Source: Roseovarius sp.
GTDB lineage: Bacteria > Pseudomonadota > Alphaproteobacteria > Rhodobacterales > Rhodobacteraceae
Assembly: GCA_029212365.1 (NCBI GenBank)
Contig: JARGOC010000016.1
Location: 1 to 64,000, forward strand
Length of the DNA stretch: 64,000 bases
Direction: 5' to 3'
Made by a program: the position numbers and the translations under genes. Positions 20,355 to 42,009 of the stretch are shown one piece after another (the first letter of the stretch is position 1; the number at the start of each line of letters is the position of its first letter). The notes under the pieces were generated by a model, which did not search any database, had not been told where the DNA came from, and saw only the letters and a list, made by a program, of their open reading frames with translations.

Positions 20355-20389
20355 TTATGATGCTCTGACCGCATAGCGATGACGCGAAA

Positions 20390-20406: not shown

Positions 20407-20482
20407 CAATGCGGCACAGCCTGATGTGTGCGTTCATCCCTCGACATTTCACCTTAGAAATGACGCGTAAGTCATTGATAAA

Positions 20483-21967
<1,485 letters not shown>

Positions 21968-22069
21968 CTATTGCATGGAACGCGCAAGGGGGAAAGGGCA
22001 ATTCGTGGCTGGACGCATGTAGCGTTTCAGGTCACCTTCACTGTGCACCACAAGACCGAGGATTTTGAC

Positions 22070-23029
22070 ATGGCATCACATGGATATGACGCAGGCAGGT
22101 TGAACCTGCCCTTTGTCGGTATCTCAACCTTCGCCAAGCGGCCCTATGTCGAGAATTGGGATGCACTTGATGCAGATGTCTGCATTCTGGGGGCACCTTT
22201 TGATGCGGGCACCCAGTGGCGATCTGGCGCGCGGTTCGGGCCTCGTGGTGTGCGCGAGGCCTCAACCCTGTTCAGCTTTGGCCATGCGGGCGCCTATGAT
22301 CACGAGGATGACGCCACCTATCTGCCTGGCGATGTGCGGATTGTGGATATTGGGGATGCGGATATCATCCACACCGACACCCTCCAGTCACACGCCAATA
22401 TCGAAGAGGGCGTGCGCGCGATCCTAAAGGCAGGTGCCCTGCCCGTCGTGATTGGCGGCGATCATTCGGTCAACATCCCATGCGTGAATGCCTTTGATGA
22501 TCAAGGCGACATTCATATTCTGCAAATTGATGCGCATCTGGATTTTGTCGATGAGCGCCATGGTGTGCGATATGGGCATGGCAACCCGATGCGCCGGGCT
22601 GCGGACAAGGGCTATGTCACGGGCCTCACCCAACTGGGCATTCGCAATGTCAGCTCAACCGCCAAAGAAGGGTATGTGGACGCGCGCAACATGGGGTCTG
22701 ACATTTTGTCAGTCAGGCAGGTGCGCGCCCTTGGCCCCGATGAAACAGTCGCGCGCATTCCTGAGGGTGCACGGCTTTACATAACCATCGACATTGATGC
22801 CTTTTGCCCCTCAATTGCGCCTGGCACCGGCACCCCGAGCCATGGCGGGTTTTTGTACTACGATGTGCTGGAAATCCTGCAACAGGTGGCGCAACGCCAT
22901 CAGATTGTCGGCATTGATCTGGTTGAAGTGGCCCCGGATTATGATCCGACGGGGTCGACGTCAATTCTGGCCGCACAGGTGTTGTTAAACCTGCTTGGGT
23001 TCATTTTTCACGCCAAAGAGAGCCCGTAG
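22070..23029 (+). CDS. Agmatinase-like ureohydrolase (arginase/agmatinase family)
   Basis: A 319-residue binuclear manganese hydrolase that releases urea from a guanidino compound. Metal ligands are visible in GGDHS, DAHLD and DIDAFCPS. The best family fit is agmatinase (SpeB) rather than arginase, but guanidinobutyrase and related enzymes share these motifs. An open frame extends upstream to 21452, but that region is the antisense of guaB and reads as non-protein; ATG 22070 has GAGGA about 7 bases upstream. No other polyamine genes are nearby. Confidence 0.85.
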   Translation: MASHGYDAGRLNLPFVGISTFAKRPYVENWDALDADVCILGAPFDAGTQWRSGARFGPRGVREASTLFSFGHAGAYDHEDDATYLPGDVRIVDIGDADIIHTDTLQSHANIEEGVRAILKAGALPVVIGGDHSVNIPCVNAFDDQGDIHILQIDAHLDFVDERHGVRYGHGNPMRRAADKGYVTGLTQLGIRNVSSTAKEGYVDARNMGSDILSVRQVRALGPDETVARIPEGARLYITIDIDAFCPSIAPGTGTPSHGGFLYYDVLEILQQVAQRHQIVGIDLVEVAPDYDPTGSTSILAAQVLLNLLGFIFHAKESP

Positions 23030-23053
23030 TTCTGCAACGAGAACGATTCCATG

Positions 23054-23073
23054 TGGAAAACACTGGTTTTCCA
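23054..23073. terminator. Hairpin between the ureohydrolase gene and yidD
   Basis: A perfect 8-base stem TGGAAAAC / GTTTTCCA with loop ACTG (23054-23073), in the 52-base gap between two convergent genes. It can serve both strands, though neither has a clean T-run directly after it. Confidence 0.5.
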
Positions 23074-23081
23074 ATCCCGGT

Positions 23082-23327
23082 TTATTTGTTGTGCTTATCC
23101 GGTTTCGTATCAGGCACCGGATCATACCCGCTGTCCCCCCATGGGTGGCACCGGCATATTCGCCGGGCTGCCAACCAGCCGCCTTTGACACCGCCATGGC
23201 GCTGCAAGGCCTCCATTGCATAGGCGCTGCATGTGGGCTGATACCGGCAGTTGTGCCCAACCCAGGGCGAAAAGACTACGCGATAACCACGCACCGGCAA
23301 TGACAGGATATAGGCCAGCGGGGTCAT
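23082..23327 (-). CDS. yidD: Membrane protein insertion efficiency factor YidD
   Basis: An 81-residue protein with the family pattern [27 protein letters not shown] and [13 protein letters not shown]. It is amphipathic and thought to help YidC-dependent insertion at the inner membrane. Its ATG overlaps the rnpA stop (ATGA), the standard rpmH-rnpA-yidD order. The usual downstream yidC is not here: a convergent ureohydrolase follows instead. Confidence 0.93.
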
Positions 23328-23746
23328 GTCGGGCTGTGCAATTTGCGCAGAGCATAGCGCAAGTCACGCTCCAGCTGGTCAAACGGCACCTCGGTTGTCG
23401 CGCCCTGTTTGCCGATCAGCACATAATCCCATCCCGGTTGGCCCAGTTGCGTCAGCACAAGACGCGCCACTTCGCGCAGTCTGCGCTTGGCGCGGTTGCG
23501 CGCCACAGCATTGCCGACTTTCTTTGAACAGGTAAATCCAACATGAATGTCCGGGGTATCATCCCCCCGGTGGCGCGCTTGCACCAGCATCGAGGAGGTG
23601 CCTTGCCGTTTCGCACGCGCAGCGGCCAGAAATTCAGACCGTTTGCGCATGGTGCACAGGACATGCGGGCGCGTTTCCTGTGGGCAAAGCGAAGCCGCCG
23701 GGGGCGTATTCCCCGCGTTCATATCGGGGGCCTCCGGCGGCATCAT
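23324..23746 (-). CDS. rnpA: Ribonuclease P protein component
   Basis: A 140-residue basic protein that assists the RNase P RNA in trimming tRNA 5' ends. The conserved core starts near residue 33 ([10 protein letters not shown]) and includes [22 protein letters not shown], the RNR motif, split here as GFTCSKKVG and [13 protein letters not shown]. The N-terminal 30 residues are Pro-rich and variable, so the start (23746 or 23743) is less sure than the rest. It lies 25 bases downstream of rpmH and is coupled to yidD. Confidence 0.93.
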
Positions 23747-23771
23747 ATCACTTACCTGAATAACCGAGGGC

Positions 23772-23906
23772 TTACGCGCTCAGTGATTTCCGGCCTTGGG
23801 CGCGACGCGCGTTGATGATCTTGCGACCGGCTTTGGTGGCCATGCGTGCGCGAAAACCGTGGCGACGTTTGCGTACCAGGTTCGAGGGTTGAAAGGTGCG
23901 TTTCAT
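23772..23906 (-). CDS. rpmH: 50S ribosomal protein L34
   Basis: A 44-residue basic protein: [20 protein letters not shown] at the start, then [21 protein letters not shown], ending KSLSA. It is a complete L34, preceded by GGAG about 7 bases before the ATG at 23906. It leads the rpmH-rnpA-yidD unit and has a clear promoter about 70 bases upstream. Confidence 0.97.
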
Positions 23907-23976
23907 CGCTCCGTCTCCGACTAAAGTAAGGGGGTTGCGCAGGAATCGCGCGAACCATCATGTATCCGAAGCCCTG

Positions 23977-24005
23977 CCTATAGAGCGGCGTTTGGGCCAA
24001 GTCAA
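23977..24005 (-). promoter_or_regulatory. Sigma70-type promoter for rpmH-rnpA-yidD
   Basis: On the minus strand TTGACT (24000-24005) is followed by a 17-base spacer and TATAGG (23977-23982). The match and spacing are good, and the expected start of transcription is about 65 bases before rpmH. Confidence 0.7.
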
Positions 24006-24187
24006 ACCCTAGGCCGCGGGTTTGCAACAAAAACCGTGGCCCAGAGCCCACAGAATGTTACAAACCTTGCAAACTTGGGCCAAATCAGCGTCAGCCCATC
24101 ACCCATGATCACCGGCTCGTGAGGGCTATGGCATAACCCGCACATTTTGCGCATCTAGGGATCAACGCTATCAAACCGGAAGACCCC

Positions 24188-24919
24188 ATGGAAGATGTTT
24201 CGCCCAATCGCAAGACTGGTCTGCTGCGCCACACGCCTCTGACGGTCATATTGCTGGCCGCTGTGGTCGGCTTTTTCACCCTTGGGGAATACCTGAGTTT
24301 TGATACTCTGCGCGATAACCGTGAGGCGTTGATGGCGTTTCGGGATGCCAATTACATTGGCCTCGTGGCCGTGTTCGTTGGCCTCTACTTTGTGATTGTC
24401 GCCTTTTCGCTGCCCGGTGCTGCGGTGGCATCGGTCTCGGGCGGTTTTCTTTTTGGCCTCGGACTGGGGACCACATATAACGTGCTGGCAGCCACATTGG
24501 GGGCCATTGCCATATTTGGCGCCGCCCGCTGGGGTCTGGGGCGCACTTTGGCGGCCAAGATGGATGCCTCGGAGGGGGCATTAAAAAGGATCAAAACCGG
24601 GCTGCGTGAGCACGAGATTTCAGTGCTGTTCTTGTTACGCCTTGTGCCTGCGGTGCCTTTCTTTGTGGCCAATTTAGTGCCGGCTCTGGTGGGGGTGAAG
24701 TTCCGCAATTTCTTTTTTACCACCGTGTTAGGCATCATCCCTGGTTCGATCGTTTTCACCTGGATCGGCGTTGGATTGGGTGAGGTGTTTGATCGAGGTG
24801 AAAGCCCCGATCTGAGCCTTTTATGGGAGCCACAGATCATCGGGCCAATCCTGGGCCTTTGTATACTGGCCGCCCTGCCGATCCTGATCAAGGCCCTGAT
24901 CAGCAAGAAGGGTATCTGA
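24188..24919 (+). CDS. TVP38/TMEM64-family membrane protein
   Basis: A 243-residue inner-membrane protein of the TVP38/TMEM64 (SNARE-associated, DedA-like) family. Hydrophobic segments flank a conserved GAAVASVSGGFLFG loop and a LRLVPAVPFFVANLVPAL re-entrant segment, both typical. Related proteins move or scramble lipids, but the bacterial substrates are unclear. The flavin disulfide reductase gene starts 3 bases after its stop, a pairing that is common in proteobacteria and suggests shared redox or metal-stress work. Confidence 0.85.
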   Translation: MEDVSPNRKTGLLRHTPLTVILLAAVVGFFTLGEYLSFDTLRDNREALMAFRDANYIGLVAVFVGLYFVIVAFSLPGAAVASVSGGFLFGLGLGTTYNVLAATLGAIAIFGAARWGLGRTLAAKMDASEGALKRIKTGLREHEISVLFLLRLVPAVPFFVANLVPALVGVKFRNFFFTTVLGIIPGSIVFTWIGVGLGEVFDRGESPDLSLLWEPQIIGPILGLCILAALPILIKALISKKGI

Positions 24920-24922
24920 GCC

Positions 24923-26341
24923 ATGCAAAACCTGACATCAGATCTGCTGATCATCGGGGCCGGCTCGGGCGGGCTGTCTGTTGCGGCTGGTGCTGTGCAA
25001 ATGGGGGCCTCGGTGATCCTGCTTGAGGGACACAAAATGGGCGGCGATTGCCTGAACTATGGCTGTGTGCCCTCAAAGGCGCTGATTGCCTCGGGCAAGG
25101 CGGCTTATGCGCAGGCGCATGTCTCGGATTTTGGCGTGGCCAATGTGACCCCCAAGATCGATTACGCCGCCACCAAAGACCATGTGAAAGATGTGATCGC
25201 ACAGATTGAGCCTCTGGACAGCGTTGAGCGCTTTGAGGGGCTTGGTGTGAAGGTCATTCAGGAGTTTGGAACATTTATCTCCCCCACACAGGTGCAGGCG
25301 GGGGAGTATGTGATCACCGCACGCCGGATCATCATCGCAACCGGCTCCTCGCCATTTGTGCCGCCTATTCCGGGGCTTGAAAACGTACCCTTTGAGACCA
25401 ACGAGACCATATTTGATCTGCGCGAGCAGCCCAAACATCTGCTGATCGTCGGCGGCGGCCCGATTGGCATGGAAATGGCCCAAGCGCATGTCCGGTTGGG
25501 TAGCAAGGTGACTGTGATTGAGGGCGTAAAAGCTCTGGACAAAGACGACCCCGAACTCAGCGCCATCCTGTTCGAGCGGCTGCGCGGAGAGGGCATTGAG
25601 ATTGCCGAACACGCCATGGCGGCAGAAATCCGTGGCACAGCAGGCGCGATTGAGGTCGAGGCCAAGGATGGCCGTATCTTCAAGGGCACACATCTGCTGA
25701 TGGCTGTGGGGCGCAAGGCCAACACCGACAAGCTGAACCTTGCTGCGGCAGGCATTGAGCCGTCACGCCGCGGCATCAAGGTGGATGACGCCCTGAAAAC
25801 CACCAACAAACGCGTCTATGCCATTGGCGATGTGGCAGGCGGGCTGCAATTTACCCATGTGGCTGGCTATCACGCGGGCATCATCATCCGCTCGGCCGTG
25901 TTGGGCCTGCCTGCCAAACAGCGCCGCGATCACATCCCCTATGCCATCTACACCGATCCCGAGCTGGCCCAGATCGGCCTGACCGAGGCACAGGCCAAAA
26001 AGGCCCATGGTGCCAAACTGGAGGTCGTGCGGTTTCACTACGCGCACAATGACCGCGCCATTGCAGACCGCAAAACCGATGGTCTGATCAAGGTGATGGT
26101 TGTCAAAGGGCGTCCCGTAGGGGCCTCAATCGTCGGTGCACAGGCGGGCGAGTTGATCAATCTCTGGGCGCTGGTGCTGGCCAACAAACTGAAGATGAAA
26201 CATGTGGCAGGCATGGTTGCCCCCTACCCTACCATTGGCGAATTGAACAAACGTGTCGCAGGGGCCTATTTCTCGCCGCGGTTGTTTGATAATCCTATGC
26301 TCAAACGGGTGGTTGGTTTTGTACAACGCTGGCTGCCGTAA
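24923..26341 (+). CDS. Pyridine nucleotide-disulfide oxidoreductase (MerA/Lpd-like)
   Basis: A 472-residue FAD enzyme. The FAD site IIGAGSGGLS (about 10-19) is followed by the redox disulfide Cys43/Cys48 in GGDCLNYGCVPSK, a second Rossmann unit VGGGPIGMEMA and the FAD element YAIGDVAG. The dimerisation domain ends the protein. Where dihydrolipoamide dehydrogenase has the His-Pro-Thr of its catalytic His-Glu pair, this protein has Tyr435-Pro-Thr, with Glu440 kept, so it is not a normal Lpd. It has no N-terminal metal-binding domain. Annotators often call it mercuric reductase-like; the substrate is unknown. Confidence 0.85.
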   Translation: MQNLTSDLLIIGAGSGGLSVAAGAVQMGASVILLEGHKMGGDCLNYGCVPSKALIASGKAAYAQAHVSDFGVANVTPKIDYAATKDHVKDVIAQIEPLDSVERFEGLGVKVIQEFGTFISPTQVQAGEYVITARRIIIATGSSPFVPPIPGLENVPFETNETIFDLREQPKHLLIVGGGPIGMEMAQAHVRLGSKVTVIEGVKALDKDDPELSAILFERLRGEGIEIAEHAMAAEIRGTAGAIEVEAKDGRIFKGTHLLMAVGRKANTDKLNLAAAGIEPSRRGIKVDDALKTTNKRVYAIGDVAGGLQFTHVAGYHAGIIIRSAVLGLPAKQRRDHIPYAIYTDPELAQIGLTEAQAKKAHGAKLEVVRFHYAHNDRAIADRKTDGLIKVMVVKGRPVGASIVGAQAGELINLWALVLANKLKMKHVAGMVAPYPTIGELNKRVAGAYFSPRLFDNPMLKRVVGFVQRWLP

Positions 26342-26353
26342 CCCATCCATGGA

Positions 26354-27751
26354 ATGCAAATGCTGAACTCACTGTCCGGTCGATTTGTCATCCTGACTGC
26401 CGTCTTTGTGATGCTGGCAGAAATCCTGATCTTTGTGCCGTCAATTGCGCGCTACCGCGAAGATTTTCTGATGGACCGGCTCGAGCGGGCACAGATCGCG
26501 TCCCTTGCCCTGCTGGCTGACGATATGATCGACCCCTCCGTTCAGGAAGAACTGCTGGACAATGCCGGGGTATTCAACGTTGTGTTGCGCCGTGATGAGG
26601 CGCGCCAACTGGTGCTGTCCTCGCCGATGCCCCACCCGATTTCCGAAACCTTTGATCTGCGCGATACCGGCGCGCTGGAACTTATCGGTGATGCCATCGC
26701 GCGCCTGTCACAACGCGAGCCCGACGTCATTCGCGTCATCGGACAGCCTGCCCGCATGGGTGGTCTGCTGATCGAGGTGACGCTGGAAACCAGCACCTTG
26801 CGCGCCGCGATGGTGGATTATGGGCTGCGTATTCTGGTGTTGTCGGCGGTGATTTCGCTGATCACGGCCATCATGCTCAACCTCGCTGTGCGCCGTATTC
26901 TGGTCAAACCCATTCGCCGTCTGGTAGAGCATATGAAATCCTATGCCTCGGCCCCAGAAGATGCGCGCCGGGTGATTGTACCCTCCGCCAGCATCCGCGA
27001 GGTACGCGAGGCCGAGGACACGTTGTTGAGCCTGCAAACCCAGCTGACCCACGCCCTGAAGCAACGTGAACGCCTGGCGCAACTGGGAAGTGGTGTGGCC
27101 AAGATCAGCCATGACTTGCGCAACATCCTGACCAGTGCGCAGCTGTTCACGGATCGCATTGAAATGTCCCAAGACCCGGCGGTCATGCGAATGGCCCCCA
27201 AGCTGGTGAATTCCATCACCCGCGCGGTGCATCTGTGCGAATCCACGCTTGCCTTTGGCAAAGCCGAAGAACGCGCCCCGGTGCTGACCAGCTTTGATTT
27301 GCAAGAGATCATAAGTGACGTCATCGAAAGCGAAAAATTATCGGTGGCTGATTTCGATCTGAGCTTTTCGGTGGATGTGCCAGATGGCCTGAAAATTCGT
27401 GGCGATTCCGAGCAAATGTACCGCGCCATTCAAAACCTCGCGCGCAACGCACGCCAGGCCATTGTCAACTCAGGTAGCCGGGGTGAAATCAGCGTTTCAG
27501 CCTCGGAAACGTCGGCTGAATGGCTGATCTATGTCGCCGATACTGGCCCAGGCTTGCCGCCGAAAGCGCAGGAATATTTGTTCCAGCCGTTTCAGGGCGG
27601 CACCACGCGGGATGGCACCGGCCTTGGGCTGTCCATTGCCATGGAACTGGTGCGCGGGCACGGCGGAGAGCTGACTTTGCTGCAGACCGGGCCCCAAGGC
27701 ACAACCTTCCGCATCTCGCTTCCCAAAGGGGATGCGGCGCAAGGCAAATAA
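26354..27751 (+). CDS. Orphan sensor histidine kinase
   Basis: A 465-residue membrane kinase: TM1 about 10-30, a periplasmic sensor part to about 150, TM2 about 155-177, HAMP about 178-235, then HisKA with the phospho-accepting His253 (SHDLRN motif) and a HATPase domain with N, G1 (DTGPGLP) and G2 (GTGLGLS) boxes. No response regulator lies next to it. An alternative ATG at 26360 has GGA at a better distance. Signal and partner are unknown. It follows the reductase gene by 12 bases, so it may be co-transcribed. Confidence 0.87.
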   Translation: MQMLNSLSGRFVILTAVFVMLAEILIFVPSIARYREDFLMDRLERAQIASLALLADDMIDPSVQEELLDNAGVFNVVLRRDEARQLVLSSPMPHPISETFDLRDTGALELIGDAIARLSQREPDVIRVIGQPARMGGLLIEVTLETSTLRAAMVDYGLRILVLSAVISLITAIMLNLAVRRILVKPIRRLVEHMKSYASAPEDARRVIVPSASIREVREAEDTLLSLQTQLTHALKQRERLAQLGSGVAKISHDLRNILTSAQLFTDRIEMSQDPAVMRMAPKLVNSITRAVHLCESTLAFGKAEERAPVLTSFDLQEIISDVIESEKLSVADFDLSFSVDVPDGLKIRGDSEQMYRAIQNLARNARQAIVNSGSRGEISVSASETSAEWLIYVADTGPGLPPKAQEYLFQPFQGGTTRDGTGLGLSIAMELVRGHGGELTLLQTGPQGTTFRISLPKGDAAQGK

Positions 27752-27805
27752 TTCCGCTGCGCCCTCTTGCAATGCCAGATCGGGCGGGATAGATGCACAG
27801 CCGAC

Positions 27806-27882
27806 GGACCGATAGCTCAGCTGGATAGAGTACCTGACTACGAATCAGGGGGTCGGGGGTTCGAATCCTCCTCGGTCCGCCA
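27806..27882 (+). tRNA. tRNA-Arg (ACG)
   Basis: A 77-base cloverleaf: acceptor GGACCGA pairs with TCGGTCC; the anticodon loop CTACGAA gives ACG, whose A34 would be edited to inosine by TadA. CCA is encoded (27880-27882). A T-rich run follows. An integrase gene begins about 150 bases downstream, so its 3' end is the likely integration site of the island remnant. Confidence 0.97.
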
Positions 27883-28032
27883 TTGCCCCCTTTTTCTCAA
27901 CCTCCACCAATTTCACACACTGGCGTATCACCTTACAAATTAGGGGGCTTCGATTGAAGAAGGTTTGCCTCGCCTTTAATTGGCTTTTACTGGATTGTGT
28001 TTACTGCGTGGTAACTAACGTGGTAACTGCCA

Positions 28033-28948
28033 ATGGGACACCTATCTGGCAAATTGACAAAGCGGCAAATTGATACCCTGCCAACGGGTAGGCATGGGGA
28101 CGGCAATGGCCTGTTTTTGGTAGTGAAGCCGTCCGGCGCGAGGAGCTGGATCGTTCGGCTGACCGTGAAGGGGCAAAAAAACACCAAGGGTGCGCCCCTG
28201 CGCACAGACCTGGGTATCGGCGGCGTAGGTTACGTTCCCCTGCATGAAGCCCGCGAGACGCGCCATTAAATATCGCGCTTTGGCACGTAAGGGAATAAAT
28301 CCAAAATACAGCGCGCCTGGGACTGTTCCAACATTTGAGGAAATGGCCCGCGAAGCGCACGTTGATCGCATGCCTACGTGGAAAAATGCCAAACATGGGC
28401 AACAGTGGATAAACACCCTGCGCGATTATGCCTTTCCCAAAATCGGGCGCATGCCAATTGACAGCGTCGGCAAGCCGGAAGTGTTGATGTGCCTTTCCCC
28501 AATCTGGACGGAAAAGCACGAAACAGCCCGACGCTTGGCACAGCGTATCAAAACGGTATTTGACGTGGCCAAGGCAAAAGGTTTTCGTGAGGGCGAGAAC
28601 CCCGTGACCGCAATCAAGGAAGCGGGCGCTTTGCCAAAAATGAAGAGGAAACCCAAGCATCATAAAGCTATGGGTTGGTGCGATGTTCCTGCCTTCTATG
28701 CTGATCTGCAAAAACGAGATGCCATGGCGGCAAAGGCGCTGATGTTCACATGCCTGACTGGTTCCAGAACAAGTGAAGCGTTAGGCGCGAAATGGCCAGA
28801 ATTTGATTTTGACAATGCCATTTGGACGGTTCCCGCCGAACGGATGAAGGGCGGGCAATCTCACCGCGTACCACTAACGCAGGAGATGTTAGATATTGTC
28901 GAGCCGCTCAAAACGTATCGCAGCGAGTGCGTATTTGAGGGGCAGAAA
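28033..28948 (+). pseudogene. Tyrosine recombinase (integrase) of tRNA-associated island, frameshifted and truncated
   Basis: The first frame (28033-28269) encodes an Arm-type DNA-binding domain (TKRQIDTLPTGRHGDGNGLF). A single extra base near 28261 shifts the frame; the protein then continues from about 28262 (AIKYRALARKGINP) through a core-binding domain into the catalytic domain (TCLTGSRTSEALGA, with the first catalytic Arg; then ERMKGGQSHRVPL). It stops at the left end of an IS3 element, before the His-x-x-Arg box and the Tyr nucleophile, so it cannot be active. Position next to tRNA-Arg fits P4-type/DUF4102 integrases. Confidence 0.88.
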
Positions 28949-28974
28949 TGAAGTGGTCCTACTTATTCGGACAG
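28949..28974. repeat. IS3 left inverted repeat
   Basis: Outer end of the element: TGAAGTGGTCC, nine variable bases, then GGACAG. It matches the right end at 11 of 11 outer bases and at the inner block. Its first bases supply the stop codon that ends the truncated integrase. Confidence 0.85.
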
Positions 28975-29009
28975 TTTTACGGCTTGGCTAAGATGTAATC
29001 TGGTTGGTT

Positions 29010-29864
29010 TTATGCCGCCTGTTGGGTTCGTTGTTTATCGAAGAATGCGTCGTCGGGGGATCGTTTGTCGAGGGCTGCGTGGGGCCGTTCAGTATTGTAG
29101 AAGTTGATCCAGTCTTTGATCACGCATTTGGCTTGGAAGCCGTCCTGCAATTCGTGCAGATAAACGGCCTCCTGTTTGAGTGACCGCCACAGCCGTTCGA
29201 TGAAGATGTTGTCGAGATAACGACCCCGCCCATCCATCGATATTTTGACATCCGCCTCAGCCAAAGTGGTGATCCAAGCCGCACCGGTGAACTGCGATCC
29301 CTGGTCCGTGTTCATGATCTCTGGCGTTCCATATTTGGCAATTGCCTCCTTCAAGGCCTCGACACAAAAGCTAGCCTCCAGCGTGTTCGAGAGCCGCCAC
29401 GCCAGCACCTTGCGCGTGGCCCAATCCATGATCGCGACCAGATATAAGAACCCACGGCGCACTGGAATGTAGGTAATATCACTGCACCAAACATGGTTCG
29501 GACGCGTGATCGGCAGCTTCCGTAGCAAGTAGGGGTAAATGCGATGCTGTGGGTGTTTCTTGCTGGTGTTGGGCCCTTTGTAGATGGCCTGCAGCCCCAT
29601 GATACCCATCAAACGACGTACACGGTGGCGACCCGCGTGGAACCCATTTCTGGGCAAATAGGCTGCGATCTGGCGACTTCCGAAGAACGGGTATTTCGTA
29701 AAGACACGGTCGATCTCATTCATCAGTTTCAACGTCTCTGCATTCACGCCAACCGGTGTGTAATACAGCGACGACCGGCTGATATTCAGCAACTTGCACT
29801 GCTTGGTCAGGCTCAAATCAGTGCGATCCCAATTGATCATCGCCTTGCGTTCGGTCGGGCTCAT
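29010..29864 (-). CDS. IS3-family transposase, OrfB (DDE catalytic part)
   Basis: A 284-residue rve-fold transposase: an HTH_21-like N-terminal part, then WCSDITYIP with the first Asp, NTDQGSQFTG with the second, and FIERLWRSLKQE with the Glu of the DDE triad. It overlaps orfA by ATGA but its frame also extends upstream (VTRVEAM) to a slippery site in orfA, so the active protein is probably an OrfAB fusion made by -1 frameshifting. Confidence 0.93.
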   Translation of the reverse strand: MSPTERKAMINWDRTDLSLTKQCKLLNISRSSLYYTPVGVNAETLKLMNEIDRVFTKYPFFGSRQIAAYLPRNGFHAGRHRVRRLMGIMGLQAIYKGPNTSKKHPQHRIYPYLLRKLPITRPNHVWCSDITYIPVRRGFLYLVAIMDWATRKVLAWRLSNTLEASFCVEALKEAIAKYGTPEIMNTDQGSQFTGAAWITTLAEADVKISMDGRGRYLDNIFIERLWRSLKQEAVYLHELQDGFQAKCVIKDWINFYNTERPHAALDKRSPDDAFFDKQRTQQAA

Positions 29865-30139
29865 CGCTTCAACCCTTGTGACAAAAAATCATTTTCGACC
29901 GCCAGTTTTCCGATCTTCGCGTGCAGCTCTTTGACTTCGGATTCGTTGTCTTCCGCTCTCCTGACCTTGTCGGAAAACACCCCGGTCAGCCCATCAATGG
30001 CTTGTCGTTTCCACGTCGTCACCTGCGTCGGATGAATTCTGTGCTTCGCTGCAATCTCTTGCGCGGTCTTGTCACCACGCAGCGCCTCAAGCGCCACTGT
30101 AGCTTTGAATTTATCTGAAAAACTGCGTCTCTTCGTCAT
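29861..30139 (-). CDS. IS3-family transposase, OrfA (helix-turn-helix)
   Basis: A 92-residue protein with an HTH_Tnp_1 domain (KRRSFSDKFKATVALEAL, then HRIHPTQVTTWKRQ) and a leucine-zipper-like tail. It binds the terminal inverted repeats and can regulate transposition. A T-TTT-TTG heptamer (29882-29888 on the minus strand) sits in frame 7 codons before its stop. Confidence 0.92.
   Translation of the reverse strand: MTKRRSFSDKFKATVALEALRGDKTAQEIAAKHRIHPTQVTTWKRQAIDGLTGVFSDKVRRAEDNESEVKELHAKIGKLAVENDFLSQGLKR
29882..29888 (-). promoter_or_regulatory. Probable programmed -1 frameshift site in the IS3 element
   Basis: The minus strand reads T TTT TTG in the zero frame of orfA (codons GAT-TTT-TTG). 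Slipping back one base leads without a stop into the orfB frame (GTC-ACA-AGG-GTT-GAA-GCG-ATG). The arrangement matches the X-XXY-YYZ rule used by IS3 elements to make OrfAB. Confidence 0.6.
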
Positions 30140-30179
30140 TTGTGTATCCTGTCTTCAAGGTTGGATACATCTTAGCACG

Positions 30180-30205
30180 CTGTCCAGTTTTGCCGGACCA
30201 CTTCA
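30180..30205. repeat. IS3 right inverted repeat
   Basis: Read inward on the minus strand it begins TGAAGTGGTCC and has GGACAG at positions 21-26, mirroring the left end at 28949-28974. Confidence 0.85.
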
Positions 30206-30208
30206 AAA

Positions 30209-30589
30209 GAGATAGCCGATGTCGATGTTTTTGAGGCTGACGGGAAAACGCCTCGGCACTGTGCAGAAGCCAAGGATAAGCCATTCACAAGGGCTGACGT
30301 TGATCACGCTGCTGGTAAAGTAGCCGAAGCGGGGCATTCTGGTCTGATCTTCATCTATGGACCAAACGCCAAGACTTCCGAAGATATGGATGCTTTGGTG
30401 AAGGAATACGAGGCGAAAGGCTTTGATCTAACCTTCGTGCAGGCTGACGCATTTGCGGATGGTATCGTATCGTTGGCACCTAGCGTATCCGCCGCCGAAG
30501 TGGTCGATCTTCTGAACAAGCACATTGCCATGACCCGCGCAAAGGAGGTGACCATCAAGCACTGTAAGGAAGTCATTGAAAAGATGTAA
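30209..30589 (+). pseudogene. C-terminal remnant of a PD-(D/E)xK restriction endonuclease (SacI-like)
   Basis: A 126-codon frame without a start, opened by the right end of the IS. It begins EIADVDVFEADGK and reaches HCAEAKDKPFT, i.e. Asp, about 16 residues, then Glu-Ala-Lys: the PD-(D/E)xK nuclease signature. The following helices (DVDHAAGKVAEAG, then LIFIYGP) resemble SacI-family type II enzymes. The upstream part is missing, and no methyltransferase gene is nearby. The segment reads as continuous with the integrase frame if the IS is removed, but the two are unrelated proteins, so DNA was lost here. Confidence 0.6.
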
Positions 30590-30704
30590 GATTCGGCACA
30601 GCGTAGTCTGAACAGTATTTTCTGTGCTTATTCGGTACTTCTAAGACAACCACAAACTGACTGGCGCAATTCTCGCCTTAAATATTTGTTTTTATTGCGA
30701 AAAA
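30590..30704. other. Short intergenic stretch between nuclease remnant and tRNA-Thr
   Basis: 115 bases, AT-rich, with no gene, and no copy of the tRNA-Arg 3' end that I can find. If an attachment site once marked the right end of the island, it is no longer recognisable here. Confidence 0.4.
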
Positions 30705-30780
30705 TGGTGCCCCCACACGGACTCGAACCGCGGACCTATTGATTACAAATCAATTGCTCTACCAGCTGAGCTATAGGGGC
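30705..30780 (-). tRNA. tRNA-Thr (UGU)
   Basis: A 76-base cloverleaf on the minus strand: acceptor GCCCCTA pairs with TGGGGGC; the anticodon loop TTTGTAA gives UGU (reads ACA). CCA is encoded (complement of 30705-30707). Its 3' end faces the island remnant. Confidence 0.97.
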
Positions 30781-30967
30781 TACGGGGGCTGAAATACGCA
30801 AACCTATTTAACTGTGCAAGAGAAATTCGCGGCATTTCTGCGGATTTACCCTCTATTTACCATAGCATCGCCCTGAGCGTGCCACACCTGCGGCCAAAAA
30901 CCAGTTTTACATGGCCTCAAACAAAGCTATGACCCCATTGCCCCCCGAGAGAGAGCTGGAACTCAAC

Positions 30968-31846
30968 ATGCAAGTCGTCATCCACGCAGGTGCGCATATT
31001 ACTGACGAAGACCGGCTGGTGAATACGCTGATCACCAACCGCGATATGCTGGCCGCGAATGGCACCAATATTCCGCACCCCAGCACCTATCGCAAACTGT
31101 TGCGCGACGTTCTGCAAGAGGCGCAGCACAGTGGTGGGACCAGCTCTCAAGCGCGGGATGTATTGCTGGATGCCATCCTGAAGGGAGAGGCAAAGGACCG
31201 GCTGATCCTGTCAAACCCCGGCTTTTTTGGCACCCCAAAGATGGCAGTATCCGCAGGCAGCCTGTATGGCGCCGCCGAACAACGCCTGAACATTCTGAAG
31301 GACATATTTGAGCAAGACAAAATTGAGTTGTTCATGGCCATCTGCAATCCGGCCACCTTTTTGCCTGCGGTCTATAAAAATACACCCCACACCAGTTTTG
31401 ACGAATACATGCGCCATGTTGACCCTCGTGAGGTGCGCTGGTCGGAAATGATTGACCGTATACGCGAGGCATTTCCCGATCTGGCGATCACCATCTGGTG
31501 TAACGAAGACCTGCCTATGGTCTGGAGCCAGGTCCTGCGTGAAATGGCGGGGGTTGATCCGACGGTAGAAATCGCGGGCGAATTCAATCTGCTGCGCGAG
31601 ATCATGTCTGAGGCCGGATTAAAGCGGTTCAAGTCCTATCTCAAATCCCATCCCGGCATGTCAGAGATCCAGAAACGGCGCGTCATCGCGGCCTTCCTTG
31701 ACAAGTTCGCCAAAGAAGATGCGATTGAGGAAGAGCTGGACATGCCCGGCTGGACAGAAGAACTGATAGATCAGATCACCGAAATCTATGACGAGGATCT
31801 ATATACGATCCAACGCATTCCGGGGATCAACCTGATCACACCGTGA
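30968..31846 (+). CDS. Sulfotransferase-like protein lacking the P-loop
   Basis: A 292-residue cytosolic protein. The start VVIHAGAHITDEDRL followed by NRDMLAANG resembles the opening of bacterial sulfotransferase-fold proteins (HxGxHKTGTT, then NRxxL). Here the PAPS-binding Lys-Thr-Gly-Thr-Thr is replaced by Ile-Thr-Asp-Glu-Asp, so PAPS binding is unlikely. The C-terminal half is helical with no motif I know. The ATG at 30968 gives this N-terminus; a longer frame begins at 30911 without a ribosome site. Conserved hypothetical is the safe call. Confidence 0.6.
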   Translation: MQVVIHAGAHITDEDRLVNTLITNRDMLAANGTNIPHPSTYRKLLRDVLQEAQHSGGTSSQARDVLLDAILKGEAKDRLILSNPGFFGTPKMAVSAGSLYGAAEQRLNILKDIFEQDKIELFMAICNPATFLPAVYKNTPHTSFDEYMRHVDPREVRWSEMIDRIREAFPDLAITIWCNEDLPMVWSQVLREMAGVDPTVEIAGEFNLLREIMSEAGLKRFKSYLKSHPGMSEIQKRRVIAAFLDKFAKEDAIEEELDMPGWTEELIDQITEIYDEDLYTIQRIPGINLITP

Positions 31847-31884
31847 CGTCAACAGGCGCGTGACAGGCCCACGCCTGACCACAA

Positions 31885-32142
31885 TCACATCCCAAGCGCT
31901 TCTTTGTACATTTCCAGCACGGCTTCTTCTTCGGCAATGTCGTCTTTGTCACGCTTGCGCAGAGACACGACCTTGCGCAACACCTTGGTGTCGTAGCCCC
32001 GGGATTTGGCTTCTGCCATCACTTCTTTTTGCTGCTCTGCGATGTCTTTCTTCTCGGCTTCCAGCCGCTCAAACCGTTCGACAAATTGGCGCAGCTCATC
32101 AGCTGTCACACGGTAGGTGGCATCGGGGGACATATCGCTCAT
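31885..32142 (-). CDS. gapR: GapR-family (DUF2312) nucleoid-associated protein
   Basis: An 85-residue, highly charged helical protein: TADELRQFVERFERLEAEKK, AEAKSRGYDTKVLRKVVSLRK and EEEAVLEMYKEALG are the DUF2312 hallmarks. In Caulobacter the homologue GapR clamps overtwisted AT-rich DNA ahead of replication and transcription and helps topoisomerases. Start at 32142 follows an AGAGGC site; the longer frame to 32235 is not needed. It converges on the sulfotransferase-like gene. Confidence 0.9.
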   Translation of the reverse strand: MSDMSPDATYRVTADELRQFVERFERLEAEKKDIAEQQKEVMAEAKSRGYDTKVLRKVVSLRKRDKDDIAEEEAVLEMYKEALGM

Positions 32143-32288
32143 GGGGGAGGCCTCTTGGTCAGAAATGTTGAGCATTCGTCCTACCCCTGCCCGCGCGCCA
32201 CTGCAAGACGCAAGCGCGGGGAAACTTGAAACCACATCGCAACTCAGCTAGGTGCAGGCGCGTGGCGATTAAGCCGGTGGAGGCAGTG

Positions 32289-32504
32289 ATGGGAATATTG
32301 GTTTGGCTTGGCGCACTTGTGTCGTTTATCGGCCTTATTGGGCTGGTCTGGTGCATTGTCATCGTTTGGAAGGCCAAGTCATCGGGCAAAAGCGATGACG
32401 AGCTTAAAGCAAGCATTCAAAAGGTGATGCCGCTGAACGCTGGCGCGTTGTTTTTGTCCATCATCGGGTTGATGATGGTGGTGATGGGTATTGTGCTTAG
32501 CTGA
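32289..32504 (+). CDS. Small two-TM membrane protein
   Basis: A 71-residue protein with two membrane helices (about 3-25 and 50-70) joined by a charged loop (KAKSSGKSDDELKA). GGAGG lies 5 bases before the ATG at 32289. It is divergent from gapR and convergent with the FadB-like gene (7 bases between stops). No family recognised; function unknown. Confidence 0.65.
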   Translation: MGILVWLGALVSFIGLIGLVWCIVIVWKAKSSGKSDDELKASIQKVMPLNAGALFLSIIGLMMVVMGIVLS

Positions 32505-32511
32505 GCCGGAT

Positions 32512-34593
32512 CTAACCAACACTGCGACCAAAAAAACCATTCCCCTGTTTGACCATATCGGTGATCTTGTCGTGGGGTGCCCAGATCGGTGACAGCTGTG
32601 CCAGCCTTTGCATATCTTTGAACAGATAGAACAGACCCGACATATCGACCTGCAACAATGGCCCCCCCATTGCACTGCTATAGCCAAACCCTTTGACCAG
32701 GATCAGATCAATATCTGACGCGCGGCGTATGTGGTTGCCTTCTAACAGCCGGGCGGCCTCATTCACCAGCGCCCCCACCAAAGCCGATCCAATCAATCGC
32801 GCGCTCATGTTGGGGCCAGCCTGGCTTCGGTTTGGCAAGGGCAGATATTGGGCAAGCGCCGGGTCCTCATGCAGTTGGCCATCAACATGGATATAGAACC
32901 CCTGCCCCGAGCTGCGCCCAACACGCCCATCCTTGACCAGATGGGCCAAGACCGCATCCGGTGACGCCGCTAAAGCGTGCTGAGTGGCATATTTCTCTAA
33001 TCGGGTTTGCACCTGGGGCAATCCAGCCCTGTCCATCAGGGCAAATGGCCCGGCTGTAAATCCTATCTCACGGGCGGCGGCATCCACCGCATAGGGCGAA
33101 ACCCCGTGGTGCAACAGTTGCATCGCAGCCCCATAAAAGGCCGCTGCAAGCCCCCCCCGGATGCTGCCTGCCTGCAAAGGGGTCAGGATCGCTGATTTGC
33201 CAAGGCGGCGCACAACACCCATCACCGCGGCCACATCCGAGCCCCCCTGCTGTGCGGGGTATGACAGCTCGACAATCTGGCGTTCTGACATGGGCTGATA
33301 GGCGTGCAGACCAATGGCGGGTTTTTTGACAGCCATTTCGGCGGCACGGGTTTTGGCTGTGGTTTCAGGCTCCAACACGCACCAGATGGCATCGCCGCGC
33401 AGATCAATCGCCCGCCCCGGCGGGGTGGACCCATCATCAATGATCAGATCGCTCTGGGCGAGATTGGCAAAACTCGTACTGCATTCAAGCTGCGTCATAC
33501 GCTGCGCAAATTGGGCCTCGTTCCACTTACCTTGCTTCACCAGATTTTGCAGCGCCCGTGTGATCCAGGCGTCAAAGGCCTGCGCATCCGCAGCCTCGGC
33601 GCAGGTGATATTTACGCCAAAGCCGGCATTCAACAGCAACACGGCCAGCTCCCCCAGCCGATCACGCGTGCCCAGCAAGGCAATCTGGCGGATCGGGGTC
33701 TCCCTTGCCCCATCAGAACGCGGCGGAATGGCTGCATACTTCTCGGCCATCAGATAATGGCGCGCGCACCGCGCTGCGGGCGAGGCTATTCTGTCGTCAA
33801 ACACCACGCGCTCGAAGGCCAATCCCTGTTCGAACGGCAATAATTGGGCGCTTTCCACGCAGCGCAGAATATCCCCCGCAGCCCCGGAATGCGGTGACAT
33901 CTGCGCCTTTAGGCCGTTCACCGACGCCTGATACGAGACAGGATCAGAAAACCCGGCACATTTATCGCGCGCCGTCTTCCACTGGCCTGAGTGCGCCAGC
34001 TTCAATGCCAATTCGCAGGCACCATCCACAGGTGAGGTTTGCGTCAATTGGGTGATCAGCCGGGCCACCCGAGGGTCCGAAGCGGGAAACACCTGGCCGC
34101 TCAGCAATATTTCCAGCGCGCGCTGTGCCCCCAGAATACGCGGCAGGCGCTGTGTGGCACCGGCACCGGGGATCATGCCCAGTTTGATATCCGGCATGGC
34201 AAGGCGCGTATCGGCATGGGCAACCCGCGCATGGGCCGCCAGCGCCAGTTCAAGCCCTGCCCCCAAGGCACTTGCATGCATGGCAGCCACGATGGGCTTT
34301 GGGCTGTTTTCAATTTTGGTGCAAAGGTCGGACACCCAAGGATGCCTCAAAAGGTCGTTATATTCAGCAATATCAACGCCAACGCAAAAGCTGCTGCCGG
34401 CCCCGGTCAACACGATGCCAATCACATCCGGATTGGCCATGGCCTGATCCAGATGTTGATCCAGCACCAGCCGCAGTTCAGGCGTCAGCACATTGGATGG
34501 GGGCCGGTTGAGCGTGATCACCCCAACCCCGTCCTTCACAGTTGTGAAAACCTGCTCTGCCAACACTGCCCCTCGCGTTTTGTCACCAATCAC
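32512..34593 (-). CDS. FadB/FadJ-like enoyl-CoA hydratase/3-hydroxyacyl-CoA dehydrogenase, divergent
   Basis: A 693-residue two-domain beta-oxidation-type protein. The crotonase half (about 1-190) keeps the first catalytic Glu (GAGLELAL) but has PDIKLG where PE(T/V)KLG is usual, so the second Glu is Asp. In the dehydrogenase half the Rossmann GxGxxG is replaced by LLGTRDRLGE, while the His and Glu dyad spacing (HAYQPMSERQIVE) is kept. The C-terminal helical domain is normal. It may be a peroxisomal-type multifunctional homologue with altered cofactor use, or a scaffold. No thiolase is adjacent. Confidence 0.82.
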   Translation of the reverse strand: MIGDKTRGAVLAEQVFTTVKDGVGVITLNRPPSNVLTPELRLVLDQHLDQAMANPDVIGIVLTGAGSSFCVGVDIAEYNDLLRHPWVSDLCTKIENSPKPIVAAMHASALGAGLELALAAHARVAHADTRLAMPDIKLGMIPGAGATQRLPRILGAQRALEILLSGQVFPASDPRVARLITQLTQTSPVDGACELALKLAHSGQWKTARDKCAGFSDPVSYQASVNGLKAQMSPHSGAAGDILRCVESAQLLPFEQGLAFERVVFDDRIASPAARCARHYLMAEKYAAIPPRSDGARETPIRQIALLGTRDRLGELAVLLLNAGFGVNITCAEAADAQAFDAWITRALQNLVKQGKWNEAQFAQRMTQLECSTSFANLAQSDLIIDDGSTPPGRAIDLRGDAIWCVLEPETTAKTRAAEMAVKKPAIGLHAYQPMSERQIVELSYPAQQGGSDVAAVMGVVRRLGKSAILTPLQAGSIRGGLAAAFYGAAMQLLHHGVSPYAVDAAAREIGFTAGPFALMDRAGLPQVQTRLEKYATQHALAASPDAVLAHLVKDGRVGRSSGQGFYIHVDGQLHEDPALAQYLPLPNRSQAGPNMSARLIGSALVGALVNEAARLLEGNHIRRASDIDLILVKGFGYSSAMGGPLLQVDMSGLFYLFKDMQRLAQLSPIWAPHDKITDMVKQGNGFFGRSVG

Positions 34594-34665
34594 TGCTGAC
34601 CATTACACCCAAAGCCACCGAGGCAAGCAAGTCTTTGCTTTGGGCGCGTTCAAATCAGGTGTTGA

Positions 34666-34869
34666 TCAAACCGGCATATTCTCGAATTGGGCCTCAACGG
34701 CTTCATCCCGCAGGATTGCATTCAACTCGCGCGCTTCGGGCGGAACGGGCTCGTCGCGGGCGCGCATTTCGCGTATCAATGCGGCCAGCTTTGGTTGCAT
34801 CTTATACCGCTGCTCAATCGGATATTGGCGAATGGCTTCTTGCATATCGCTCCAATTTTCTTGGGTCAT
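34666..34869 (-). CDS. Small hypothetical protein (67 aa)
   Basis: A 67-residue, soluble, helix-rich protein (ENWSDMQEAI at the start, LAALIREMRARDE in the middle). No membrane or signal segment, no family recognised. It lies 72 bases upstream of the FadB-like gene on the same strand and may be co-transcribed. Confidence 0.55.
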   Translation of the reverse strand: MTQENWSDMQEAIRQYPIEQRYKMQPKLAALIREMRARDEPVPPEARELNAILRDEAVEAQFENMPV

Positions 34870-35026
34870 GGTTTGGCATCTCCCCTGAGGTTACAACCCT
34901 GAGTGTATCACAGCAAAGCCGCCCTCCATATGATCAGGATCAAACTGGTGAAAATAAGCATGTAGGTGCCGTTTTTGCTGGTGGCTTTTAAAATTCAAGG
35001 GGCCCAGTTTGATCTGGTCACTGGAA

Positions 35027-35050
35027 ACATATGCGCGTTATGCTATATGT
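35027..35050. promoter_or_regulatory. Possible operator upstream of the beta-lactamase hydrolase-like gene
   Basis: Inverted repeat ACATAT (35027-35032) / ATATGT (35045-35050) with GC dinucleotides flanking an inner spacer. AT-rich palindromes before such genes are bound by ArsR-type sulfide sensors (BigR/SqrR) in related bacteria; whether this one is such a site is unproven. Confidence 0.3.
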
Positions 35051-35082
35051 CACTAAACCCCAGAACAGATCAGAGTTCCGCA

Positions 35083-35946
35083 ATGCAGCCAGAAATTTCC
35101 GCCTTTTTTGACGATGCTACCAACACAATTTCTTATGTGGTGCGTGATCCGGGTGGCACCGCCTGCGCTATCATCGATAGTGTGCTGGATTTCGATTATT
35201 CCTCGGGGCGCACCGATACCCGTTCTGCGGACCGCATCATCGCCTATGTTCAGGATCATGCGCTGAATGTGCAATGGTTACTGGAGACCCATGTGCATGC
35301 CGATCACCTGTCAGCCGCCCCCTATCTTCAGGACCGGTTGGGCGGCAAGATTGGTATCGGCGCCAACATCCGCCAAGTTCAGGATGTGTTTGGCAAGGTT
35401 TTCAATGAGGGCACTGAATTTCAGCGTGACGGCTCGCAGTTTGATCAGCTGTTTCAGGATGGTGACAGCCTGCACATCGGCCAATTGCGCGGGGATGTAT
35501 TGCATACCCCCGGCCACACGCCTGCGTGCCTGACCTATGTGATTGGCGATGCGGCCTTTGTGGGAGATACGTTGTTTATGCCGGATTTTGGCACAGCGCG
35601 CTGCGATTTTCCGGGGGGGTCATCATCTGACTTGTTTGATTCAATCCAGAAAATCCTCAGCCTGCCGGATGAAACACGCATTTTTGTGGGCCATGATTAC
35701 AAAGCACCGGGGCGCGAGGAGTTTGCCTGGGAGTCCACTGTAGGTGCCCAAAAGGCGCGCAATGTGCATGTTGGGGATGGTGCCAGCCGCGAGGATTTTG
35801 TGGCATTGCGCGATACCCGTGATGCGCAACTGGACATGCCCAAGCTGATCATCCCGTCCATTCAGGTGAATATGCGCGCCGGGCAATTCCCCCCCGAAGA
35901 AGACGATGGGTCAGTCTATCTGAAAGTGCCGGTGAACAAGCTTTAG
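35083..35946 (+). CDS. blh: Beta-lactamase hydrolase-like protein (MBL fold, persulfide dioxygenase-like)
   Basis: A 287-residue metallo-beta-lactamase-fold protein. Metal ligands are His70, His72, Asp74 and His75 (THVHADH), the later His in TPGHTPAC and Asp in FVGDTLF, and a GHDYKAPG segment. The closest relatives are the Blh/ETHE1-like persulfide dioxygenases that detoxify sulfide in alphaproteobacteria. Start chosen at 35083, after an inverted repeat; 35047 is possible. Neighbouring sulfide genes (sqr, bigR) are not present. Iron-dependent dioxygenase activity is inferred from the family. Confidence 0.8.
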   Translation: MQPEISAFFDDATNTISYVVRDPGGTACAIIDSVLDFDYSSGRTDTRSADRIIAYVQDHALNVQWLLETHVHADHLSAAPYLQDRLGGKIGIGANIRQVQDVFGKVFNEGTEFQRDGSQFDQLFQDGDSLHIGQLRGDVLHTPGHTPACLTYVIGDAAFVGDTLFMPDFGTARCDFPGGSSSDLFDSIQKILSLPDETRIFVGHDYKAPGREEFAWESTVGAQKARNVHVGDGASREDFVALRDTRDAQLDMPKLIIPSIQVNMRAGQFPPEEDDGSVYLKVPVNKL

Positions 35947-35949
35947 GCT

Positions 35950-37047: not shown

Positions 37048-37110
37048 GTGTCCGTCACTGTCCCCCTTGGGCTTGGAGGCAGAATACGTGCAAATTGGTT
37101 ACCAAGGGCT

Positions 37111-41937: not shown

Positions 41938-41961
41938 CTCGTTTTCCTTACAATTTCGGTG

Positions 41962-41983: not shown

Positions 41984-42009
41984 TTTTTACAAATTTTCCA
42001 CCTTAACTG

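What the first reader, a model, noticed from the sequence alone, without database searches (positions are those of the whole stretch)
27806..30780. Collapsed genomic island between two tRNA genes
tRNA-Arg and tRNA-Thr face each other with their 3' ends, and between them lie only an integrase fragment, an IS3 element and a restriction-enzyme fragment. Integrase beside a tRNA 3' end is the standard entry of an island; a restriction system is typical cargo. Most of the island appears deleted, probably by recombination or adjacent deletion involving the IS.
Basis: partly seen in the sequence, partly recalled or inferred. Interest (0 to 1): 0.58.

Follow-up and report, generated by a model that had tools for sequence, protein, structure and literature searches.

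The report
Two decayed islands fused at an IS3
Between two tRNA genes of an alphaproteobacterium lie the stumps of what look like two different mobile islands, one per tRNA, joined by a jumping gene; it is an ordinary but unusually legible scar of island decay and chromosome rearrangement.

Summary
In detail: tRNA-Arg and tRNA-Thr face each other, with a broken tyrosine integrase, one complete IS3 element and the C-terminal third of a SacI/EcoT38I-type restriction enzyme between them. "One collapsed island" is only partly right. The integrase family sits beside tRNA genes; an intact relative occupies the same tRNA-Arg in genome G025, with a 20-base attachment repeat 32.5 kb downstream. The restriction fragment belongs to another element: in Paenihalocynthiibacter styelae the complete R-M pair ends beside the same tRNA-Thr, and similarity to the window runs through the spacer. 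In near relatives G014 and G069 the two tRNAs lie 150 and 184 kb apart. Most likely the tRNA-proximal stumps of two islands were fused at an IS3 copy by a rearrangement that removed the rest. The IS ends lie within three bases of both breakpoints, which points to the IS as agent; matching AAA triplets beside it leave a later insertion possible. No attachment repeat of tRNA-Arg and no further part of the R-M element was found in the genome. A new instance of known processes, not a new system.

The parts
27806..27882 (+). tRNA-Arg(acg), intact; integration site of the first element
   Evidence: ARAGORN; homologous integrase at the same tRNA in G025 and G065
28033..28269 (+). N-terminal part of a tyrosine integrase, before a frameshift
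   Evidence: Pfam Arm-DNA-bind_3; tblastn shows the G025 integrase matching in two frames, residues 4-95 then 96-325
28244..28948 (+). central part and start of the catalytic domain of the same integrase; the last 98 of 423 residues of the G025 homologue are missing
28946..28948 (+). AAA immediately left of the IS: native lysine codon of the integrase, or left target-site duplicate
   Evidence: lysine in 13 of 15 homologues, written AAA in 6; a related IS copy has a 3-bp duplication GAT
28949..30205 (-). IS3-family element, 1257 bp; end arms of 26 nt, 73% complementary
   Evidence: only full copy found in the genome
29010..29864 (-). IS3 orfB (DDE transposase, 284 aa)
   Evidence: NF033516 transpos_IS3 E 3.7e-78
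29861..30139 (-). IS3 orfA (HTH, 92 aa)
   Evidence: HTH_Tnp_1 E 4.9e-11
30206..30208 (+). AAA immediately right of the IS: native lysine codon of the restriction gene, or right target-site duplicate
   Evidence: lysine in 4 of 4 homologues; AAA in L125 and L127, AAG in L126 and in the closest one, L124
30206..30589 (+). C-terminal third of a SacI/EcoT38I-type type II restriction endonuclease
   Evidence: RE_SacI, REase_II; 95% aa identity to the C-terminus of the 373-aa enzyme of P. styelae
30590..30704 (.). spacer between restriction gene and tRNA-Thr, probably element-borne
   Evidence: 81/114 identical to the P. styelae spacer; 43/99 and 44/111 to the native spacers of G014 and G069; 30 random pairs mean 0.44, maximum 0.58
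30705..30780 (-). tRNA-Thr(tgt), intact; integration site of the second element
   Evidence: ARAGORN; same tRNA beside the complete R-M in P. styelae

Best explanation
Two unrelated integrative elements once sat at two distant tRNA genes of this lineage. One, with a tRNA-type tyrosine integrase, was at tRNA-Arg(acg). The other, ending in a SacI/EcoT38I-like restriction-modification pair, was at tRNA-Thr(tgt). A rearrangement joined the inside of the integrase gene to the inside of the restriction gene, with one IS3 copy at the joint, and the remainder of both elements was lost. The likeliest route, inferred, is either recombination between two IS3 copies, one in each island, or an IS3-driven adjacent deletion or joining event. 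Shown: the two gene stumps, the coincidence of the IS ends with both breakpoints to within three bases, the linkage of the restriction gene to tRNA ends elsewhere, and the separation of the two tRNA loci in near relatives. Inferred: the order of events and the IS as agent. Today the site has no visible island function: the integrase lacks its C-terminal catalytic part and the restriction gene lacks two thirds of its length. Only the IS3 and the tRNAs look intact.
For: (1) The P. styelae R-M (C5-methylase plus 373-aa RE_SacI, E 1.2e-70) ends beside tRNA-Thr(tgt), and nucleotide similarity to the window (88.6%) covers 30198-30780, including the spacer. Of 6 non-window loci holding a relative of this gene at 74% identity or more, 4 end beside a tRNA found by ARAGORN: Thr, Thr, Asn, Leu. 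(2) The integrase family: 13 of 15 loci scanned have a tRNA beside it (11 Ser, 1 Arg, 1 Glu); G025 has the intact gene at this tRNA-Arg plus a 20-bp repeat 32.5 kb away. (3) In G014 and G069 the tRNA-Thr block and the tRNA-Arg block are 150 and 184 kb apart, with trigger factor (named by eye) beside tRNA-Thr. In the sister G038 (96%) tRNA-Arg is followed by a helicase gene (named by eye) and no match to the integrase was found in its assembly, which is 76% complete. (4) Integrase homology runs up to the IS in 15 of 15 homologues aligned, and restriction homology starts at its other end in 4 of 4, each to within three bases. (5) IS3-family IS150 insertions coupled to deletions of 14 bp to 48.9 kb were 14 of 68 IS150 events in evolved E. 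coli (PMC11708052, passages read).
Against: The triplets beside the IS match (AAA/AAA). A related IS copy makes a 3-bp duplication, so a plain insertion into an already fused int-RE junction is possible; a chance match has probability about 0.019. In the closest restriction homologue the right-hand codon is AAG, not AAA, which fits a duplicated triplet slightly better. The coupled IS150 deletions of PMC11708052 lacked such duplications. The IS has no second full copy in the assembly, so the partner copy is not seen. The reciprocal joint was not found: the missing integrase C-terminus was sought only on contigs C26, C45 and C47, and the missing R-M part in the whole genome (only a 57-bp match). 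Five of 84 genus genomes do have the two tRNAs facing each other at 3-19 kb, though in another clade of a one-gene tree.
Confidence: 0.64

Rival explanations
1. Local collapse: the two tRNAs were already neighbours in this lineage, each with its own island or one composite island in the gap, and a single local deletion ending at the IS removed the middle.
For: In 5 of 84 genus genomes (G009, G023, G024, G035, G059; read off the listed rows, which are cut off, and checked) tRNA-Arg and tRNA-Thr face each other at 3-19 kb in the same orientation. In G024 an integrase and a 16-bp repeat of the tRNA-Thr end show an island in that gap.
Against: Those five fall in a separate clade of the histidine-kinase tree, whereas G069 and G014 have the two tRNAs far apart and the sister G038 has other genes after tRNA-Arg; what precedes tRNA-Thr in G038 is unknown. 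The trigger factor gene beside tRNA-Thr in G014 and G069 (and 2 kb away in G031 and G012; 4 of 27 tRNA-Thr loci inspected) lies on another contig here.
Confidence: 0.2
2. The int-RE fusion came first, by illegitimate recombination at a short A-rich match, and the IS3 later inserted by chance at the joint, duplicating AAA.
For: AAA on both sides and a 3-bp duplication (GAT) in a related copy; lysine codons lie at the breakpoint in both parent genes, and the closest restriction homologue has AAG where the window has AAA.
Against: Needs the insertion to hit the joint itself out of roughly 1.5 kb of remnant sequence, a coincidence rarer than the 0.019 chance match needed by the IS-driven model (the comparison is inference).
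Confidence: 0.22
3. Assembly chimera: two IS copies, one in each island, were collapsed and the contig crosses from one to the other.
For: An IS at a joint of two distant loci is a typical misassembly site; the genome is a draft of 65 contigs.
Against: The other halves that a chimera would leave behind were not found: no further full IS copy and no rest of the R-M element beyond a 57-bp match. The missing integrase end is not on C26, C45 or C47; the other contigs were not searched for it, and the assembly is 95.7% complete.
Confidence: 0.08

Closest known systems
tRNA-targeted genomic islands with P4-like tyrosine integrases (the label P4-like is recalled)
   Same: Arm-DNA-bind_3 / Phage_int_M / Phage_integrase protein just downstream of a tRNA 3' end; intact relative with tRNA attachment repeat in G025
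   Different: Here the integrase is frameshifted and truncated, no attachment repeat was found, and no cargo of this element is seen
SacI / EcoT38I type II restriction-modification systems
   Same: The full relative matches RE_SacI and EcoT38I of PDB 7e8r (E 6.3e-68), with a C5 methylase gene beside it
   Different: Only the last 127 residues remain here, and the rest of the element was not found in the genome at the searched similarity
IS3-family (IS150) insertions coupled to adjacent deletions or rearrangements (PMC11708052, passages read)
   Same: One IS3-family element between two sequences that are not neighbours in near relatives
   Different: Those events lacked target duplications, while here the flanking triplets match; the event here is past and was not observed directly
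Single IS joining two distant loci (non-canonical amplification joint, PMC13423834, abstract and passages read)
   Same: The joint tRNA-Arg block | IS | tRNA-Thr block is the kind a tandem duplication of the 150-kb segment would make relative to G014 (inference)
   Different: No duplication is seen; later loss of one copy would have to be assumed
Transposable-element plasticity in Octadecabacter, Roseobacter clade (PMC3646047, passages read)
   Same: Order of blocks broken between related alphaproteobacteria rich in mobile elements
   Different: The held main text of that paper does not use the word tRNA (0 occurrences)

Membership tests
tRNA-targeted integrative element (Arg side) | tyrosine integrase gene adjacent to a tRNA 3' end | tested here: met
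   the integrase frame 28033-28948 starts 150 bp after tRNA-Arg; relatives beside tRNAs in 13 of 15 loci
tRNA-targeted integrative element (Arg side) | complete integrase | tested here: not met
   frameshift and loss of the last 98 of 423 residues relative to G025
tRNA-targeted integrative element (Arg side) | direct repeat of the tRNA 3' end at the far boundary | tested here: not met
   a 27-mer with up to 3 mismatches occurs only in the tRNA itself; a 19-mer with up to 3 finds two further 3-mismatch places, one of them in another tRNA-Arg-like end on C47 and one on C49 not examined
SacI/EcoT38I-type type II R-M system | SacI-family endonuclease | tested here: inconclusive
   family membership of the fragment is clear but only the C-terminal third is present
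SacI/EcoT38I-type type II R-M system | cognate cytosine methylase | tested here: not met
   a whole-genome DNA search with the P. styelae element finds only a 57-bp match; no protein-level search for a methylase was made
IS3 family insertion sequence | orfA HTH plus orfB DDE transposase, inverted end repeats | tested here: met
IS3 family insertion sequence | short target-site duplication | tested here: inconclusive
   AAA/AAA present, but lysine codons are native on both sides in most homologues
Single collapsed island between the two tRNAs | both gene remnants derive from one element | tested here: not met
   the restriction gene ends beside tRNA-Thr or other tRNAs in 4 of 6 related loci; this is indirect, since the original elements are gone

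The most novel reading that the evidence does not exclude
Island-bearing tRNA ends act as recurrent chromosome breakpoints in this genus: mobile elements docked at different tRNA genes recombine, through shared IS copies, and re-pair the tRNA loci. The tRNA-Arg/tRNA-Thr pairing would then have arisen twice independently, here and in the clade of G009 and G059. It would also explain why two of the three joints between rearranged blocks of this contig relative to G014 (three of six joint edges) lie at tRNA 3' ends.
Probability: 0.13. Interest if true: 0.42.

Novelty: new member of a known kind. Interest (0 to 1): 0.24.

Why it matters
It shows how two islands with different tRNA addresses can be merged into one short, dead scar, and it cautions against reading everything between two tRNAs as one island. 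If tRNA-docked islands repeatedly serve as breakpoints, that could help explain changed gene order in these bacteria.

Tried and rejected
One-island model: rejected because the restriction gene ends beside tRNA-Thr or other tRNAs in other genomes.

Reciprocal exchange with a recoverable partner joint: sought by IS copies, by the rest of the R-M element and by the integrase C-terminus on the contigs held; not found. The block that in G014 and G069 precedes tRNA-Thr ends on C45 at 56183 and is followed there by genes that I read by eye as a LysR regulator and a TRAP-transporter cluster; I saw no island gene there.

Contig C47 as the lost island half: it begins with 59 bases of a tRNA-Arg 3' half, but only 88% alike and with a different acceptor end; I take it for another tRNA's neighbour.

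The first idea that tRNA-Arg/tRNA-Thr adjacency exists only here was dropped when five of 84 genomes showed it; a one-gene tree then placed them in another clade.

The spacer was checked against native tRNA-Thr spacers and 30 random pairs to test a host origin.

The Pseudorhodobacter turbinis hit with an IS piece near tRNA-Thr (H8) has the IS on the other side of the tRNA and was set aside. Distant relatives of the restriction enzyme (two phages and two archaeal plasmids at 31-33%, two family genomes at 32-34%) were not used.

Papers: searches (listings seen); passages seen of PMC3646047, PMC4176335, PMC11708052 and PMC13423834. No search was made for this exact locus in print, and no claim is made that it is unpublished.

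The AAG codon of the closest restriction homologue, first left out, was added, and the odds of the main reading and of the late-insertion rival moved from 0.66 and 0.20 to 0.64 and 0.22.
Full report
What is there. Between them, left to right, lie: a tyrosine integrase that changes frame near 28250 and stops at base 28948; a 1257-bp IS3-family element (28949-30205) with both ORFs open; and 384 bases of a SacI-type restriction endonuclease gene ending with its stop codon at 30589, 115 bases before tRNA-Thr. The IS limits agree with a relative that aligns from end to end in a Sulfitobacter indolifex plasmid.

The left stump. The integrase matches Arm-DNA-bind_3, Phage_int_M and the first part of Phage_integrase. 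In the genus, 67 of 84 genomes, its own included, have some match at E <= 0.001, and 15 other genomes have one at 62-74% identity. Fifteen loci with such matches were scanned for tRNAs and 13 have one beside the gene: 11 Ser, 1 Arg, 1 Glu. Twenty-five tRNA-Arg loci were compared by translated search, in stretches of 6 to 20 kb of which about 2 to 18 kb lie after the tRNA. Two of the 25 (G025, G065) carry a homologous full integrase right after this tRNA-Arg. Two (G039, G042) carry a different integrase (24-26% identity) and an exact repeat of at least 30 bases of the tRNA end 9-10 kb away. The other 21 gave no hit to this integrase in the stretch held, which does not prove an empty site. In G025 the last 20 bases of the tRNA recur 32.5 kb downstream, so a full island of this integrase type at this site exists. 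Against that homologue the window copy lacks the last 98 of 423 residues.

The right stump. A scan of genome contigs with the 127-residue fragment gave five loci. In Paenihalocynthiibacter styelae the gene is complete (373 aa; RE_SacI E 1.2e-70; closest solved structure EcoT38I, PDB 7e8r, E 6.3e-68), beside a C5 methylase gene, and its stop codon lies 116 bases from tRNA-Thr(tgt). The window and P. styelae are 88.6% alike over 30198-30780. The spacer is 81/114 identical to P. styelae but only 43/99 and 44/111 identical to the native spacers of G014 and G069; 30 random pairs average 0.44 with a maximum of 0.58. Beyond the tRNA the similarity falls to 50/122, the random level. Counting the plasmid hit in Pseudorhodobacter turbinis, 4 of 6 non-window loci at 74% identity or more have this gene ending beside a tRNA: Thr twice, Asn, Leu. 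Of the other two, L125 has a 77-base stretch 75% like the end of the spacer and most of tRNA-Thr shortly after the gene, then an integrase, but no tRNA by ARAGORN; L128 holds only 35 residues of the gene and no tRNA near it. None of the 83 other genomes of the genus matches the fragment. The restriction stump therefore most likely marks the tRNA-proximal end of its own element, docked at tRNA-Thr.

Were the two tRNAs neighbours? Aligning the window's contig to G014 gives five stretches, all on one strand: 9-20354, 20475-27882, 30700-49405, 50244-57579 and 57837-86799. The third and fourth are collinear and come from G014 1820793-1847828, while the stretch ending with tRNA-Arg comes from 1963073-1970464. 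tRNA-Arg and tRNA-Thr are thus about 150 kb apart in G014, and 184 kb apart in G069, in the order Thr then Arg. A simple deletion between them would not give the window's order. In G014 and G069 trigger factor (named by eye) lies beside tRNA-Thr, and in G031 and G012 about 2 kb away; it was not within the stretch held in the other 23 of 27 tRNA-Thr loci inspected. In the window's genome it is on contig C45. The sister genome G038 (96% alike) has a helicase gene (named by eye) after tRNA-Arg and no match to the integrase in an assembly that is 76% complete; its tRNA-Thr contig begins at the tRNA 3' end, window base 30706, so its other neighbour is unknown. Against this, in five of 84 genomes (G009, G023, G024, G035, G059) the pair does face each other at 3-19 kb; this count was read from listings that were cut off. 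A histidine-kinase tree of 36 genomes puts these five (with G042 and G021) far from the window's genome, whose neighbours are G038, G069, G014 and G045 (one gene, midpoint rooted, some sequences partial, no support values reported). The adjacency in the window's lineage is therefore most simply a derived state.

How it was joined. In 15 of 15 integrase homologues aligned, the reading continues past the place where the IS begins, and in 4 of 4 restriction homologues the gene continues upstream of the place where the IS ends (ungapped 60-base comparison, 30-41 of 60 and 46-58 of 60 identical). The IS thus sits on both breakpoints to within three bases. Recombination between two IS copies, or an IS-driven adjacent deletion or joining, explains that directly. 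IS3-family IS150 shows such coupled deletions in evolved E. coli (PMC11708052, passages read), though those lacked target duplications. The complication here is that AAA stands on both sides, and a related IS copy shows a 3-bp duplication (GAT). A plain insertion into a pre-formed fusion would also give this. The left AAA is a lysine codon in 13 of 15 homologues (AAA in 6); the right one is a lysine codon in 4 of 4, but AAG in the closest. A chance match of two triplets has probability 0.019 in local composition; an insertion hitting the joint by chance among about 1.5 kb of remnant bases is rarer by inference. I favour the IS as agent, at moderate confidence. Relative to the G014 order, the joint tRNA-Arg block to tRNA-Thr block is also the joint expected from a tandem duplication of the whole segment, or from its excision as a circle, followed by loss or reinsertion; this is speculation that the data permit.

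What is lost. No second full IS copy (partial relatives on C19, C62 and C56), no further piece of the P. styelae-type element except a 57-bp match, and no attachment repeat of tRNA-Arg were found in the genome. The missing integrase end was not found on contigs C26, C45 and C47; other contigs were not searched for it. Both tRNA genes are intact. The locus has no visible island function left.

Verdict. The process is known; this is a clear new case of it. The part worth a second look is that two of the three joints between rearranged blocks on this contig relative to G014 lie at tRNA 3' ends: the joint after tRNA-Ser (20354) and the joint between tRNA-Arg (27882) and tRNA-Thr (30705). The third, near 57.6-57.8 kb, has no tRNA. 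The contig has four tRNAs, and about 1.3% of it lies within 150 bp of these three. This is one contig against one reference and was noticed after the fact.

Noticed in passing
20265-20475: tRNA-Ser(cga) 3' end is another synteny break: left of it matches G014 1899-1901 kb, right of it G014 1963-1970 kb; I saw no integrase between tRNA-Ser and the next gene.
   Followed up: partly
L046 (G000:C47) 1-4933: A 4.9-kb contig of the same genome begins with the 3' half of a tRNA-Arg-like gene (88% to the window tRNA), followed by what looks by eye like a very long minus-strand reading frame and an HTH regulator, which resembles island cargo cut at an assembly end.
   Followed up: partly
L047 2378-2501: The spacer after tRNA-Arg in G038 holds a stretch of roughly 115 bases that recurs, whole or in part, in 20 of the 23 matches that one search found in the window's genome, including C26:64202-64320 just outside the window: a dispersed repeat family.
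   Followed up: no
L176 (NZ_CP039965.1 819675-828154) 4001-4588: Pseudorhodobacter turbinis carries another SacI-type restriction gene matched only over residues 214-373, ending 24 bases before a tRNA-Leu: apparently a second case of the same gene surviving as a C-terminal stump at a tRNA.
   Followed up: partly
L117 1501-1703; L118 1501-1959; L119 11-53: Partial relatives of the same IS elsewhere in the genome: 205 bp at 86% on C19, 459 bp at 71% on C62, and 43 bp at 84% at the start of contig C56.
   Followed up: partly
L132 (G024) 3670-16552: Between facing tRNA-Arg and tRNA-Thr in G024 lies an island with a different integrase (DUF6538 plus Phage_integrase) at tRNA-Thr, a 16-bp attachment repeat, and a large SMC/AAA-type gene that may be a defence gene.
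   Followed up: partly
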